From assembly GCF_025950095.1 (NCBI RefSeq), contig NZ_JAPDDR010000005.1, positions 186,001 through 250,000 on the forward strand: a stretch of DNA of 64,000 nucleotides, given 5' to 3'. The notes beneath the pieces are model-generated. The model was not told the origin of the DNA and did not search any database. It saw only the letters and a program-made list of their open reading frames with translations. This document shows, piece by piece, positions 40,123 to 56,713 of the stretch (its first letter is position 1; each line of letters starts with the position of its first letter). This DNA comes from Luteolibacter rhizosphaerae. Lineage in GTDB: Bacteria; Verrucomicrobiota; Verrucomicrobiia; Verrucomicrobiales; Akkermansiaceae. Position numbers and translations under genes: made by a program.

Positions 40123-40575
40123 TCAATCCCACACGTATCGCTCATCCCACTCCATGCCGTAATGGCTCAGGAGCTTGCGATACTCCTCTTGGAACGTGGT
40201 CGTGCGATGATGCTCCGCCTGATTCGCGATGTATTTCTCCAGCGCCTCCCGATGCGCAGGGCTAATGGAAAACATGCCGTAACCATGTTGCCAATGGAAT
40301 GAGGCCAGCCTTTTGTCCCGCGCTTTGATCCATTTCGAGCTGCTCATCTTGATCTCCTTCACCAGATCCGACGGCGCGATGGTGCGCGGATGCGAGATGA
40401 AGAGGTGGATGTGATCGGTCACGGAGCCCGCCGCCAGAAGGGGGCCTGAATGATGCCCCACGATACCGCCGATGTAGCCATGGAGGTCATCGCGCAGTTC
40501 ATCCGACAGCAAGGGCTCGCGGCCTTTGGTCGAGAAGACGAGATGAACAAGGAGGGATGCAAGCGATTGCGGCAC
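40123..40575 (-). CDS. IS200/IS605-like Y1 transposase (TnpA / RAYT)
   Basis: A 150-residue protein from the GTG at 40575 (MPQSLASLLVHLVFSTKGRE). The HUH motif is SVTDHIHLFISHP and the catalytic tyrosine is in EALEKYIANQAEHHRTTTFQ; the tail is MEWDERYVWD. These are the hallmarks of the single-domain HUH tyrosine transposase family common in Verrucomicrobia and Planctomycetes. It should nick and join single-stranded REP-flanked DNA. Both catalytic parts are present, so it may be active. Confidence 0.88.
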   Translation of the reverse strand: MPQSLASLLVHLVFSTKGREPLLSDELRDDLHGYIGGIVGHHSGPLLAAGSVTDHIHLFISHPRTIAPSDLVKEIKMSSSKWIKARDKRLASFHWQHGYGMFSISPAHREALEKYIANQAEHHRTTTFQEEYRKLLSHYGMEWDERYVWD

Positions 40576-50465: not shown

Positions 50466-51944
50466 TCAACCCAGCAGCCACAGCACCGGCTGCGGCCATA
50501 CGCCCAGCACGATGACGGCGAGGGTGAGGCCGACCACGCAGTAGCGGGTGATCTGCGGCAGCACCAGCGGCTTGGAGTCCTCTGCAGGCGTCTCCCACCA
50601 GATGGCGCGGATGATCTTGAAGTAGTAGTAGAAGCCGGCGGCGGCACCCACGAAGGCGAGGATGACAGCCCACCACAGCTTGGCCTCCACCGCGAGGGTG
50701 AAGACGAAGAACTTGCCGATGAAGCCCGCGGTGAGCGGCACGCCCGCGAGCGCGGCCATGATGATCGTGAGGCCGAGGGCGAGGGTCGGGTTGCGCTTGC
50801 CGAGGCCGTTGAAGGCATCGATCTGCTCGGAGCCGTTCTGGATGCGCACCTGGGCCAGCACGAAGAAGCTGGCGAGCGTCATCAGCAGGTAGGTGGCGAG
50901 GTAGAAGGAGACGGTCTCCACCGAGCCGAGGCCTTCCGGGCTCACGCCCTTCCATGCGGCCAGCGCCAGCACCAGAAAGCCCGCGTGGGCGATCGAGGAG
51001 TAAGCCAGCAGGCGCTTGAAGTTGGTCTGGCTGATGGCGGCGAGATTGCCGAAGAGCAGGGTGGCACCGGCCATGATGGCGAGCATCAGCACGATCTTCG
51101 AGGCGATCGGCGAGCCGGCCTCCATTAGAGGCGTGAGGAAGCGGATCAGCAGGATGAAGCCCGCGGCCTTCGAACCCACCGAGAGGAAGGCGGTCGTCGG
51201 GGTCGGGGCACCTTGGTAAACGTCCGGGATCCACACCTGCATCGGCACGGCACCGATCTTGAAGCCCATGGCGATGAGGATGAGGGCGACACCAAAGAGG
51301 AGAGGGGCGGTGCTCTGAAGCGTGTGCGCCTTCGCTCCGATCTCCGCTAGGTTCATCGTGCCGGTCGCGCCGTAGATCCAAGCGATGCCGTAAACGAGGA
51401 AGCCGGTGCTAAGCGCGCCGAGGATGAGATACTTCACGCCCGCTTCCAGCGAGCCGACATTCCGCCGCAGGTAGGCGACGAGGATGTAGAAGGTGATGGT
51501 GACCAGCTCCAGCGCCACGAAGGCCCCGGCAAGGTCCTTGGCGGAGGCCATCCACATCATGCCTGCACAGGCGAAGACGGGAAGGGCGTAGAACTCGCCG
51601 GTGCCGTTCTCGGACTCCTGGTCGTCGGTGAAGCGGGTGAGGATCGAGCGGAAGTCGATCGACATCAGCACCACGAAGATGGTGCAGACCAGCGCAAAGC
51701 CCTTGTAGAAACGCGCCAGCGAATCGAACTGGTAGAAGTTCCAGAGCGCGTAGCTGCCCCACTTGTCGCCTGCATCGGCCTTTTCCGGACCCACCGCGAA
51801 GAAGAGCAGCACCAGGATAAAGGCGAGTCCCGCGACGGCGGAACCGCTGACCAGTGCCTTCGAGTTGCGCGGGCCGAATGCTTCCAGCATCAGCAGGGCG
51901 AGGCCGAGCGTGACGGTGAGGGCTTCGAGGTAGTAGGCGGGCAT
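50466..51944 (-). CDS. nuoN: NADH-quinone oxidoreductase subunit N
   Basis: A 492-residue antiporter-like membrane subunit of complex I with about 14 helices. The conserved discontinuous-helix region is GAVPMQVWIPDVYQGAPTPT with TAFLSVGSKAAGF, and the quinone-side helix is LLAYSSIAHAGFLVLALAAW. It is the last gene of the operon. The ATG is preceded by TTCCC and no Shine-Dalgarno. It is separated from nuoM by a 43-bp spacer of heptad repeats. Confidence 0.95.
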   Translation of the reverse strand: MPAYYLEALTVTLGLALLMLEAFGPRNSKALVSGSAVAGLAFILVLLFFAVGPEKADAGDKWGSYALWNFYQFDSLARFYKGFALVCTIFVVLMSIDFRSILTRFTDDQESENGTGEFYALPVFACAGMMWMASAKDLAGAFVALELVTITFYILVAYLRRNVGSLEAGVKYLILGALSTGFLVYGIAWIYGATGTMNLAEIGAKAHTLQSTAPLLFGVALILIAMGFKIGAVPMQVWIPDVYQGAPTPTTAFLSVGSKAAGFILLIRFLTPLMEAGSPIASKIVLMLAIMAGATLLFGNLAAISQTNFKRLLAYSSIAHAGFLVLALAAWKGVSPEGLGSVETVSFYLATYLLMTLASFFVLAQVRIQNGSEQIDAFNGLGKRNPTLALGLTIIMAALAGVPLTAGFIGKFFVFTLAVEAKLWWAVILAFVGAAAGFYYYFKIIRAIWWETPAEDSKPLVLPQITRYCVVGLTLAVIVLGVWPQPVLWLLG

Positions 51945-51950
51945 GGGAAG

Positions 51951-51985
51951 AAGTGAAAAGTGCTCAGTGATCGGTGATCAGTGAA
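51951..51985. repeat. Heptad repeat (AGTGA type) in the nuoM-nuoN spacer
   Basis: Five 7-bp units in register: AAGTGAA, AAGTGCT, CAGTGAT, CGGTGAT and CAGTGAA. They fill nearly the whole spacer. Confidence 0.7.
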
Positions 51986-51987
51986 AG

Positions 51988-53502
51988 TCACTTGAGGAGA
52001 TTCAGAAGCAGGTTCGGGTAGAGGCCGACGGCGAGCAGGGCGATGGCGAGGATCAGGGCCGGGATGCGGTCTGCGAAGCTCAGGTCGGCGGCATCCGTGG
52101 TGGCCTTCACCTGCGGGCCTTGGAAGATATTCCGGTAGGCGCGCAGCATGTAGACGGCGCTGATGACCACGCCCCAGATGGCGAGGATGCAGGCGATCTG
52201 TACCGGACCGAGGCCCTTGGCAGGATCGTAGTTCTGGAAGCCGGAGAGGAAGACCATCACTTCACCGGCGAAGTTCGCCAGACCGGGCAGACCGATGGAA
52301 GCCATGCCGACCATGCCGAAGAGGAAGGCGAGACCGGGAGCGGACTTGGCAAGACCGCCGAGATCGGTGAGCTCCAGCGTGCCGGTGCTGCGCTCGATCT
52401 TGTCCGCCAGGCCGAAGAGCATGGCGATGGAGATGCCGTGCGCGAACATCAGCAGGATCGCGGCAGGCTGGGCGATGGTGTTGGTGAAGTTGCCGAGCGT
52501 GTAGGTCGTGACCGCGTTGCCGGCGGCGTCGAGGTAGCCGACCGCCGGGCTGCCGGTGTGGCTCGCGGCGAGTGCGGCGATGGCCAGGAAGATGTAGCCC
52601 ATGTGCATCACCGAGGAATTGCCGAGCATCAGGTCGAGACGCTTCTGGTTCACGGTGACGAGGCCCACCCAGAGGATATTGCCGAGCAGCAGGACCAGCA
52701 GCGGCACCAGCCAGGCATTCATGCCCTCCGGCACCATCGGGATCGCGAGGCGGAGCAGGCCGTAGAGGCCGAACTTCTTCAGCACGCCGGAGTGCAGCAT
52801 CGCGGTCGGGGCCGGGGCGCTGGCGTAGGCCGGGGCGGCCCAGGAGTGGAAGGGGAAGAGCGAGACCAGCACGCCGAAGCCGATGATGAGCAGCGCGGCG
52901 ATGCCCTTCTGCGAGGCGGCGTCGATGACCAGCGAGCCATCTTGCACCGCCTTCACCATGCTCGGCATGTCGAAGGTGCCCGCCAGCGAGGCCAGCCAGA
53001 CCAGGCCGGCCAGCAGGATCACCGAGCCGAGGCCGAGGTAGATCGTGATCTTCCACGCGGTCTCCTTCCGCTCCCCGCGGCCGAGGATGCCGATCATCAG
53101 GAAGGTCGGGATCAGCGCCAGTTCATGGAAGGCGTAGAAGAAGAACAGGTCGGTCGCGGCGAAGGCACCGATGGCACCGGCGGCGATCAAAAGGGAAGAG
53201 CCGTAGTAGAGCTTCTCGCGGCCTTCCGGGGACTTGCCGGAGAGCAGCGCGGCCAGGGTGACGATCACCGAGAGCAGCACCATCACCGCGCTCATGCCAT
53301 CGAGACCGAAGGCGAGGTTCAGCGCGGGCTTCGCGAGCACCGGCACGGACATCGACCACATGGCTGCCTTCCAGGTGAAGGCGGCCCAGACACCGAGCAC
53401 GAGATTGGCCACGCCGGCCGCCACCGCGGTCTTGCGGGCGGGCGCCCCGCCGAGGATGGCGAGGAAGGCGGCGATGGGGATAAGGACTAGCAGGAGTAGC
53501 AT
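51988..53502 (-). CDS. nuoM: NADH-quinone oxidoreductase subunit M
   Basis: A 504-residue antiporter-like subunit. Visible: FYAFHELALIPTFLMIGILG (conserved glutamate), FHSWAAPAYASAPAPTAMLH followed by the lysine of GVLKKFGLYG, and LGNSSVMHMGYIFLAIAALA. It translocates protons in the membrane arm. It lies 22 bp downstream of nuoL. The ATG context is CTTCCCATG. Confidence 0.95.
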   Translation of the reverse strand: MLLLLVLIPIAAFLAILGGAPARKTAVAAGVANLVLGVWAAFTWKAAMWSMSVPVLAKPALNLAFGLDGMSAVMVLLSVIVTLAALLSGKSPEGREKLYYGSSLLIAAGAIGAFAATDLFFFYAFHELALIPTFLMIGILGRGERKETAWKITIYLGLGSVILLAGLVWLASLAGTFDMPSMVKAVQDGSLVIDAASQKGIAALLIIGFGVLVSLFPFHSWAAPAYASAPAPTAMLHSGVLKKFGLYGLLRLAIPMVPEGMNAWLVPLLVLLLGNILWVGLVTVNQKRLDLMLGNSSVMHMGYIFLAIAALAASHTGSPAVGYLDAAGNAVTTYTLGNFTNTIAQPAAILLMFAHGISIAMLFGLADKIERSTGTLELTDLGGLAKSAPGLAFLFGMVGMASIGLPGLANFAGEVMVFLSGFQNYDPAKGLGPVQIACILAIWGVVISAVYMLRAYRNIFQGPQVKATTDAADLSFADRIPALILAIALLAVGLYPNLLLNLLK

Positions 53503-55327: not shown

Positions 55328-55362
55328 CGAAGTTCGAAGTAAAAAGTGCCAGGTGCCAACGA
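55328..55362. repeat. Heptad repeat (GAAGT type) in the nuoK-nuoL spacer
   Basis: Units CGAAGTT, CGAAGTA, AAAAGTG, CCAGGTG and CCAACGA occur in a strict 7-bp register and fill the spacer. Confidence 0.62.
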
Positions 55363-55365
55363 GGC

Positions 55366-55683
55366 TCAGCCGCGCATGCTGGTGAGGTCTTCCGTGTTGA
55401 TCGTCTGCCGTGCGCGGTAGAGGGCGACGATGATGGCGAGACCCACGGCCACCTCGGCGGCGGCCACGGTGATCACGAAGAACACGAGCATCTGCCCGTT
55501 GTAGTCCGGCAGGCCGTTCGTGCCCTTGAAGCGGGAGAATGCGACCAGCGTCAGGTTCGCGGCGCTCAGCATCAGCTCGAGGCACATGAAGACCACGATG
55601 ATATTCCGGCGCAGGATGACTCCGGAAAGGCCGATCGCGAAGAGCAACCCGGAGACGAGAAGGTAGGAATGGAGACCGGCCAT
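55366..55683 (-). CDS. nuoK: NADH-quinone oxidoreductase subunit K
   Basis: A 105-residue subunit with three helices ([60 protein letters not shown]), each with the expected glutamates for proton transfer. The true ATG is at 55683 (MAGLHSYLL); the upstream frame to 55710 enters a repeat. The inverted repeat of a small inserted element lies directly upstream, replacing its leader. Confidence 0.95.
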
Positions 55684-55689
55684 GGGAAA

Positions 55690-55729
55690 GTAGCGAGTAG
55701 CAGGTAGCAAGTAGCGGGGGAAACAGCCG
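55690..55729 (+). repeat. Left 40-bp inverted repeat
   Basis: Heptads GTAGCGA, GTAGCAG, GTAGCAA and GTAGCGG, then GGGAAACAGCCG. Partner of 56116-56155. Confidence 0.88.
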
Positions 55730-55737
55730 AAGAGGAT

Positions 55738-56097
55738 TCAGGGGCGGTTTCGGACGGAATTGGCGAGACCTGCAAGGATTCGTTTGGTTTCGAGGGCTTG
55801 TTCTTGAAGATGCGTGGTGTCCGCGTAGCCGAGATCGTGGGCAAGTAGAAGTTGGTAGCGTGCTTCGTCCAAGGAGGCTTCGCCGATGTTGTAATGGCGC
55901 GCCTTGTCGGCGTTTGACCAACGGGCGAATCCTTCCACGATATTGGAAGGAGCGGAGACTGCTGCGCGACGGACTTGAGAGGTGAGCCCAAAGGTCTCCT
56001 CTTTCGGAAAGGAACGTGTCGCCTTGTAAACACCGAGCACGAACTCATGAGCCTTTTGCCAGGCTAAGAGGTCTTCGAATCGCTCGATCTTGCTCAT
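55738..56097 (-). CDS. Four-helix-bundle protein (S23/IVP-like, TIGR02436 type)
   Basis: A 119-residue helical protein: ERFEDLLAWQKAHEFVLGVY, FGLTSQVRRAAVSAPSNIVE, the conserved GFARWSNADKARHYNIGEAS, LDEARYQLLLAHDLGYADTT and ALETKRILAGLANSVRNRP. This matches the four-helix-bundle family found within 23S rRNA intervening sequences and related to Avd of diversity-generating retroelements. Biochemical role unknown; nucleic acid binding is likely from basic surfaces. It lies inside the nuo operon on the same strand but is not part of complex I. Confidence 0.9.
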   Translation of the reverse strand: MSKIERFEDLLAWQKAHEFVLGVYKATRSFPKEETFGLTSQVRRAAVSAPSNIVEGFARWSNADKARHYNIGEASLDEARYQLLLAHDLGYADTTHLQEQALETKRILAGLANSVRNRP

Positions 56098-56115
56098 GAG
56101 TGTTGGTTTGGTCTA

Positions 56116-56155
56116 CGGCTGTTTCCCTCGCTACTTGCTACCTGCTACTCGCTAC
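56116..56155 (-). repeat. Right 40-bp inverted repeat
   Basis: Reverse complement of 55690-55729 with one mismatch. It ends one base before the nuoJ stop codon (TAG, 56158-56156). Confidence 0.88.
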
Positions 56156-56713
56156 CTATGCCTCTTGACGCTTGGAAAGGACGACCACGCCAATGGTGGC
56201 TACGAGGAGGAGGACACCGACGATCTGGAGCGGCAGGTTGTAGCCTTTGAAAAGTACGTCGCCGATGAGGTTCACGTCGGGCAGATGGCCTTCGGAGAGT
56301 TTCTGGGAGATCCCCGGGCTGGATTGGGCGTGGGCGGCGGCCGCCGTTTTCAGGTCGAGCGATTGCCACTCCATCCTCGGGGTCTTCGAGAGGATGCCGA
56401 TGAGCTGGATGGTGAAGCCGAGCACGATGCCCAGCCCGCCGAGCAGCGGTGCGAGCTTCGGCGTGCGCTTCTCCTCCACCTTCAGGTCGAGCAGCATGAT
56501 GATGAAGATGAACAGCACCATGATCGCGCCCGCATAGACGAGGATCTGGATGATCCCGACGAAGAAGGCGTTCAGACCGATGAAGAGACCCGCGAGGCCC
56601 ACAAAGGAGGCCACCATCGAAAGGGCCGAGGCGACCGGATTGCGCAGGCCGACCACCGCCACGCCGCCGAGCAGCATGACGAGTGCGAAGAACCAGAAGA
56701 GAGGAAGAGGCAT
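56156..56713 (-). CDS. nuoJ: NADH-quinone oxidoreductase subunit J
   Basis: A 185-residue subunit with five helices, including GLFIGLNAFFVGIIQILVYA and GAIMVLFIFIIMLLDLKVEE, where the pi-bulge glycine and tyrosine of VYAGAI are conserved. The ATG is at 56713 (MPLPLFWFFALVMLLGG) with TTCCC before it. The stop codon is immediately next to the right repeat of the inserted element. Confidence 0.94.
   Translation of the reverse strand: MPLPLFWFFALVMLLGGVAVVGLRNPVASALSMVASFVGLAGLFIGLNAFFVGIIQILVYAGAIMVLFIFIIMLLDLKVEEKRTPKLAPLLGGLGIVLGFTIQLIGILSKTPRMEWQSLDLKTAAAAHAQSSPGISQKLSEGHLPDVNLIGDVLFKGYNLPLQIVGVLLLVATIGVVVLSKRQEA

What the first reader, a model, noticed from the sequence alone, without database searches (positions are those of the whole stretch)
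55690..56155. Four-helix-bundle gene within 40-bp heptad inverted repeats inserted inside nuoJKL
A 466-bp unit with 39/40 identical terminal inverted repeats carries only a TIGR02436-type four-helix protein. It interrupts an operon whose other spacers are 12-43 bp. Its right end touches the nuoJ stop. Family members are known from rRNA intervening sequences and beside diversity-generating retroelements, but a repeat-bounded unit without transposase looks like an undescribed mobile element or a self-processing RNA insertion.
Basis: partly seen in the sequence, partly recalled or inferred. Interest (0 to 1): 0.8.

Follow-up and report, generated by a model that had tools for sequence, protein, structure and literature searches.

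The report
Heptad-bracketed gene cassette inside an operon
A small four-helix protein gene sits between two mirror-image arrays of 7-base words inserted cleanly between two respiratory-chain genes, and the same arrangement, with different words and insertion sites, recurs around this gene family across many bacterial phyla, which suggests a widespread and apparently undescribed kind of mobile insertion related to the intervening sequences of ribosomal RNA genes.

Summary
Window 55690-56155 is a 466-bp unit: inverted arms of GTAGCNN heptads (39 of 40 identical) around one sense-oriented TIGR02436/PF05635 four-helix (4HB) gene, placed exactly between nuoJ and nuoK. None of 14 relatives has a 4HB gene there; the spacer is 3-6 bp in 13.

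It is not a one-off. All four 4HB genes of this genome, and most of about 180 others from many phyla, have inverted arrays with period 7: 93/160 flanks in the broad sample against 0/160 shuffled. The word differs between loci but matches between the two arms of one locus. Related species keep gene and site while both arms change word. The gene is under strong purifying selection (dN/dS mostly 0.04-0.2). One junction can be empty, single-armed, an ORF-less hairpin, or full.

Best explanation: a messenger-RNA counterpart of the S23p intervening sequences of 23S rRNA, whose Coxiella member has the same protein family, a terminal stem, heptamers and RNase III excision. Excision here is inferred; how it moves is unknown. 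GxxExxY genes sit in parallel cassettes with period 9. No description of this generality was found in the papers searched.

The parts
56116..56155 (-). 5' arm (in the sense of the nuo transcript): four GTAGCNN heptads, G-rich, then the inner box GGGAAACAGCCG; its outer end abuts the nuoJ stop codon
   Evidence: inverted repeat of 55690-55729 with 39/40 identity (extends to 44 nt, 95%)
56098..56115 (-). short leader between the 5' arm and the 4HB start codon; its first bases extend the inverted repeat
55738..56097 (-). four-helix-bundle gene (TIGR02436 / PF05635, 119 aa), co-directional with the nuo genes
   Evidence: AlphaFold pLDDT 97.3, nearest solved fold 2gsc with TM 0.90, then 2rld and Avd 4dwl
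55690..55729 (+). 3' arm: four heptads in inverted orientation (C-rich in the transcript)
55684..55689 (-). TTTCCC left between the element and the nuoK start codon; counterpart of the empty-site spacer TCCC of the closest relative
56156..56713 (-). nuoJ, upstream host gene, intact
55366..55683 (-). nuoK, downstream host gene, intact
   Evidence: the ORF list gives an upstream TTG; the ATG at 55683 matches the start in relatives

Best explanation
The 466-bp unit is an intervening-sequence (IVS) type insertion in a protein-coding operon. It is a cassette made of one S23p/4HB gene and two inverted arrays of 7-base words. SHOWN by comparison: the cassette recurs in many phyla; it lies mostly sense-oriented in spacers between co-directional genes; it is present in some species and absent in others at the same junction; it is inherited at a site for long periods with its protein under purifying selection; the two arms stay matched to each other while the word changes between species. 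INFERRED: in the polycistronic mRNA the arms pair into a long stem with the 4HB ORF in the loop; RNase III cuts the stem, releasing the ORF RNA and separating the nuoJ and nuoK messages, so the insertion is tolerated inside an important operon; slippage within each array and template switching between the inverted arms keep the arms matched; the 4HB protein, probably a pentamer as in 2gsc and Avd, acts on the cassette's nucleic acid. HOW the cassette reaches new sites is not known.
For: Period 7 is specific: flanks with at least 15/21 period-7 matches are 62/106 (genus), 31/58 (phylum) and 93/160 (80 loci from many phyla), against 1, 0 and 0 for shuffles and few for other periods; background windows 39/1362. 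Arms are inverted: score >=14 in 32/52, 11/29 and 46/80 loci, direct 2, 2 and 6, swapped partners about 1 or fewer. Arm-arm RNA duplex energy beats swapped partners (p=1e-16). Matched control: GxxExxY flanks in the same genomes have 0/54 period 7 (p=9e-16). Empty sites and junction states. At orthologous sites the within-locus arm match averages 16.6 against 10.3 between orthologues (p=9e-13); dN/dS mostly 0.04-0.2. Words match in 12/21 orthologue pairs, 1/16 pairs of different loci in one genome, 10/263 unrelated pairs. Inward reading of the arms is G-rich in 94 versus 9 and 91 versus 5. Neighbour genes co-directional 82:9 upstream, 63:13 downstream by a crude ORF test. The Coxiella IVS: 428 nt, S23p ORF, 28-bp stem, tandem heptamers 5' of the ORF, RNase III cuts mapped (PMC4990558). 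An ORF-less hairpin, L005, shares the GGGGGAAACAGCC inner box with the window arms.
Against: No RNA data: cleavage of this transcript is inferred. In Coxiella the ORF is decaying and probably not translated (PMC4990558), whereas here it is under purifying selection, so the roles may differ. GTAGCNN arrays also exist as single arms or ORF-less hairpins (11 other places in this genome; many in G016), so arrays can spread or persist without a 4HB gene. No target-site duplication, circular form or recent within-species movement was seen. Some 4HB genes lack recognisable arms (for example L059, L120, L129).
Confidence: 0.6

Rival explanations
1. DNA-level non-autonomous transposon: the inverted heptad arrays are terminal inverted repeats recognised by a transposase acting in trans (for example a Y1/RAYT-type enzyme), and the 4HB gene is cargo or an accessory factor. 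Single arms and ORF-less hairpins are MITE-like derivatives.
For: Inverted termini, MITE-like hairpin sharing the inner box, dispersed GTAGCNN copies, eight Y1_Tnp genes in the genome; GTAG-tagged repeats in Verrucomicrobia are attributed to RAYTs (PMC3733652).
Against: The tested Y1_Tnp genes are not flanked by heptads; several carry long non-periodic inverted repeats of their own. Words differ between loci of one genome (1/16 shared), unlike the common ends of one transposon family. Strong sense bias and long persistence at one site are unusual for transposons. No target duplication seen.
Confidence: 0.18
2. Host regulatory module: the 4HB protein and the stem serve the host by tuning expression or stoichiometry of the genes they separate; the unit is not selfish and moves rarely.
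For: Strong purifying selection; recurrent sites between functionally coupled genes such as pheS|pheT, gyrB|gyrA, metK|ahcY, pyrR|pyrB and nuoI|nuoJ; conserved polar residues in the protein.
Against: Presence is patchy at every examined junction, and close relatives do without it. The same junction can hold an unrelated GxxExxY cassette instead (G013 at pheS|pheT), which argues for a tolerated landing site rather than one specific regulator.
Confidence: 0.19
3. The heptads are ordinary replication-slippage arrays that collect in intergenic gaps and have no functional tie to the 4HB gene.
For: Intergenic heptamer arrays without 4HB genes are documented (PMC4692102, PMC4679880) and occur here.
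Against: Inverted placement on both sides, one shared word per locus, G-rich inward polarity, absence of period 7 around GxxExxY genes in the same genomes.
Confidence: 0.03

Closest known systems
S23p-encoding intervening sequence (IVS) of 23S rRNA genes (Coxiella, Leptospira)
   Same: Same protein family in sense orientation; similar size (428 vs 466 nt); complementary ends forming a stem with the ORF in the loop; tandem heptamers next to the ORF in Coxiella; patchy distribution (PMC4990558)
   Different: Inserted between mRNA genes rather than in an rRNA helix; heptads build both arms; ORF under purifying selection rather than decay; RNase III cutting not shown here
Avd of diversity-generating retroelements
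   Same: Same four-helix fold (4dwl, TM 0.77; DGR complex 8ube, TM 0.67) and weak sequence kinship (NF033474 E=6.5e-7, PF22296 E=8.5e-5)
   Different: Adjacent genes are nuoJ and nuoK, not a reverse transcriptase; scores far below the Avd cut-offs; near-neutral protein (pI 8.1)
REP/RAYT and TIRYT systems
   Same: Dispersed short repeats with hairpins, one GTAG-containing word here (PMC3733652)
   Different: Heptad periodicity, 4HB gene instead of a transposase, locus-specific words, tested Y1 genes not heptad-flanked
Intergenic heptamer repeats (GGGAATC in Xanthomonas, GGGGAYT in Nostoc, TAACTGA in Beggiatoaceae)
   Same: Intergenic tandem heptamers, sometimes inverted (PMC4692102, PMC4679880)
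   Different: No linked gene was reported in the passages read; direct arrays predominate

Membership tests
S23p-type 23S rRNA intervening sequence | Lies within a 23S rRNA gene | tested here: not met
   Lies between nuoJ and nuoK
S23p-type 23S rRNA intervening sequence | Encodes an S23p/TIGR02436 protein in sense orientation | tested here: met
   PF05635 E=1.2e-32, TIGR02436 E=7e-32; same strand as the nuo genes
S23p-type 23S rRNA intervening sequence | Complementary ends forming a terminal stem | tested here: met
   39/40 inverted arms; fold z = -9.6 with a terminal stem over the whole arms
S23p-type 23S rRNA intervening sequence | Excision from the transcript by RNase III | not testable with these tools
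   Needs RNA end mapping; read for Coxiella in PMC4990558
S23p-type 23S rRNA intervening sequence | Mosaic presence among relatives | tested here: met
   Only G000 has the insert at nuoJ|nuoK among the relatives examined; patchy at other sites
TIGR02436 / PF05635 protein family | Score above curated cut-off and four-helix fold | tested here: met
   112.7 vs 33.8 bits, 109.9 vs 24 bits; TM 0.90 to 2gsc
DGR accessory protein Avd | Score above the Avd model cut-off; adjacent reverse transcriptase | tested here: not met
   29.6 vs 80 bits; adjacent genes are nuoJ and nuoK
Transposon with terminal inverted repeats | Encodes a transposase or shares ends with one in the genome | tested here: not met
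   No transposase inside; GTAGC arrays absent from the flanks of the eight Y1_Tnp loci; other transposase families not tested
Transposon with terminal inverted repeats | Target-site duplication | tested here: inconclusive
   None visible against the closest empty site, TAA-TCCC-ATG vs TAG-[466 bp]-TTTCCC-ATG, but the junction is too short to exclude 1-3 bp

The most novel reading that the evidence does not exclude
A pan-bacterial class of stem-bracketed, one-gene operon insertions in which each gene family goes with its own repeat period (4HB with 7, GxxExxY with 9) and each locus lineage has its own arbitrary word kept identical on both arms. The protein reads or maintains the periodic stem and the cassette spreads by an unknown route, possibly through RNA; the rRNA intervening sequences would be one special case.
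Probability: 0.35. Interest if true: 0.93.

Novelty: new variant of a known kind. Interest (0 to 1): 0.8.

Why it matters
TIGR02436 'four helix bundle protein' genes are common, have no known function, and are known mainly from rRNA intervening sequences. Showing that they usually travel inside inverted 7-base arrays in operon spacers gives the family a definable element, predicts RNA processing sites in many mRNAs, links some of the scattered heptamer repeats of bacterial genomes to a gene, and makes the long-open origin of rRNA intervening sequences testable. A locus-specific word kept identical on two arms is unusual in itself.

Tried and rejected
A first alignment was too diverse for a collection scan; a closer one worked. 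Rfam gave nothing meaningful. I considered that Y1/RAYT transposases own the heptads: none of the eight Y1_Tnp loci in G000 has GTAGC arrays, and those checked have other inverted repeats or none. I considered that GTAGCNN arrays in G016 bracket other genes: the pairs found enclose only 103-140 bp without ORFs. I briefly considered genome-wide rewriting of words; rejected, since loci of one genome rarely share a word whereas orthologous sites often do. RNA duplex base-pair counts did not discriminate (loose duplexes reach 18 bp in swapped controls too), only energies did. No match to the window protein in 50,697 phage records; 28 plasmid records, mostly cyanobacterial. Literature searches found no paper linking 4HB or GxxExxY genes as a class to periodic inverted arrays (the Coxiella IVS paper notes heptamers at one locus); only open-licence full text was searched, without a bioRxiv library.

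Full report
OBSERVATION. The unit at 55690-56155 is as described. Its arms are four GTAGCNN heptads plus an inner GGGAAACAGCCG box, inverted, 39/40 identical. The enclosed gene (55738-56097, minus strand) is a PF05635/TIGR02436 four-helix protein. An AlphaFold model (pLDDT 97.3) matches 2gsc (TM 0.90), 2rld and the retroelement protein Avd. PMC4990558 states that the Xanthomonas protein is a homopentamer.

INSERTION. nuoJ was found in 15 of 18 genomes of the genus, the window genome included. In none of the other 14 is there a 4HB gene between nuoJ and nuoK. The spacer is 3-6 bp in 13 of them (for example TAA TCCC ATG in the closest relative, G010) and about 70 bp without a 4HB gene in G012. 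In the window genome the junction reads TAG-[466 bp]-TTTCCC-ATG. The insertion therefore lies exactly between stop and start and is most simply a gain on this branch. Two other species carry 4HB cassettes one gene further upstream, at nuoI|nuoJ, with an 8-base unit. The closest homologues of the window protein in other families of the order (51-65% identity) also often sit at nuoI|nuoJ. The nearest of them, L206, has a similar word (GTAGGNN).

GENERALITY. All four 4HB genes of this genome have inverted heptad arms, each with its own word: GTAGCNN, TTCAGTN, GGTCANY, CCAGANA. Across 53 genus loci, 29 phylum loci and 80 loci from many phyla, flanks with at least 15 of 21 period-7 matches number 62/106, 31/58 and 93/160. 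Dinucleotide shuffles give 1, 0 and 0. Other periods give few, apart from the multiple 14 and a minority with period 8. Inverted matches (score >=14) are found in 32/52, 11/29 and 46/80 loci, direct ones in 2, 2 and 6, swapped partners in about one or fewer. Genome windows away from the genes give 39/1362. The 80 loci were the best matches to one query, so they are not a random sample.

SPECIFICITY. GxxExxY (PF13366) genes in the same genomes are a matched control: small genes, often in the same kind of spacer. They have period 7 in 0/54 flanks (4HB 62/106, p=9e-16). They have their own inverted arms, with period 9 in 25/54 (4HB 13/106, p=4e-6). The phylum sample of GxxExxY shows the same kind of arms less sharply (period 9 in 11/51).

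WORDS. Between loci of one genome the word is almost never shared (1/16 pairs); between orthologous sites it is shared in 12/21; between unrelated loci in 10/263. So the word is inherited with site and protein lineage. Where it has changed, both arms have changed together: arm match within a locus averages 16.6 against 10.3 between orthologues (p=9e-13). Arms read inward are G-rich on both sides (94:9 and 91:5). Slippage within arrays plus template switching between inverted copies could homogenise the arms; that is general knowledge of repeat biology, not tested here.

SITES AND STATES. Recurrent sites include pheS|pheT, gyrB|gyrA, metK|ahcY, pyrR|pyrB, livG|livF and nuoI|nuoJ (gene names are my reading of the start and end peptides). 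At pheS|pheT one genus shows 4HB with heptads (G006, G011, G016, G017), GxxExxY with 9-base arms (G013), ORF-less 9-base hairpins (G001, G014), single 9-base arms (G000, G004, G009, G010) and a 24-bp spacer (G003). At metK|ahcY six genomes have the 4HB cassette, while G000, G010 and G009 have 11-12 bp. Single arms and hairpins are readily read as remnants, but could also be precursors.

SELECTION AND ORIENTATION. dN/dS between orthologues is mostly 0.04-0.2, so the protein is under selection to keep its sequence. Neighbours are mostly co-directional (82:9 upstream, 63:13 downstream; crude ORF test with many undecided cases).

MECHANISM. The element RNA folds 9.6 standard deviations below shuffles, with a stem that runs through both arms. 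Arm duplex energies beat swapped partners over 181 loci (p=1e-16). The Coxiella 23S IVS has the same protein family, a 28-bp terminal stem, two to three tandem GACAGAT heptamers 5' of the ORF, and mapped RNase III cuts (PMC4990558). I therefore infer that the window element works like an IVS placed in an mRNA spacer, cut out by RNase III. It is not filed as a 23S IVS, because it is not in rRNA. Movement is unexplained: no transposase, no visible target duplication, and the tested Y1_Tnp genes do not share the arms.

KNOWN WORK. Heptamer arrays are described for Xanthomonas, Nostoc and Beggiatoaceae without a linked gene in the passages read. GTAG-tagged REPs are described for Verrucomicrobia. 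Searches of the open literature found no account of inverted heptad arms around 4HB genes as a class. This is absence of evidence in one library.

Noticed in passing
L235-L263 and L322-L350 (GxxExxY / PF13366 loci); pheS|pheT in G013 (L266): GxxExxY nuclease-like genes sit in parallel cassettes between inverted arrays with a 9-base unit (for example CACGGAATA CACGGAACA CACGGAA), in one case at the same junction that holds a 4HB cassette in other species.
   Followed up: partly
window 51945-51987: A heptad array (AAGTGAAAAGTGCTCAGTGATCGGTGAT, period-7 score 16/21) without a 4HB gene lies in the gap between two downstream nuo genes (ORFs 51988-53502 and 50466-51944).
   Followed up: no
window 55340-55365: The nuoK-nuoL spacer holds a short AAAGTGCCAGGTGCCA, two copies of a 7-base word, possibly a remnant.
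   Followed up: no
window 40219-40557 (L025): A Y1_Tnp gene with long non-periodic inverted flanks (ungapped match of 111 nt, score 105), resembling TIR-flanked tyrosine transposases.
   Followed up: no
L279 and L275 (pheS|pheT in G000 and its close relative G010): Both have a single 9-base array at the same place but with different words (CACGGA-type versus ACGAAT-type).
   Followed up: no
L320 (Picosynechococcus plasmid) and L319 (Trichormus conjugative plasmid): 4HB genes lie between cas10 and cmr3 of a type III-B CRISPR operon, and in a plasmid region near a TrbI/VirB10 gene with a CAGAATT-type heptad array upstream.
   Followed up: partly
G016 (L299-L317): About twenty GTAGCNN arrays, mostly single arms, none near a 4HB gene; three inverted pairs enclose 103-140 bp of ORF-free sequence.
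   Followed up: partly
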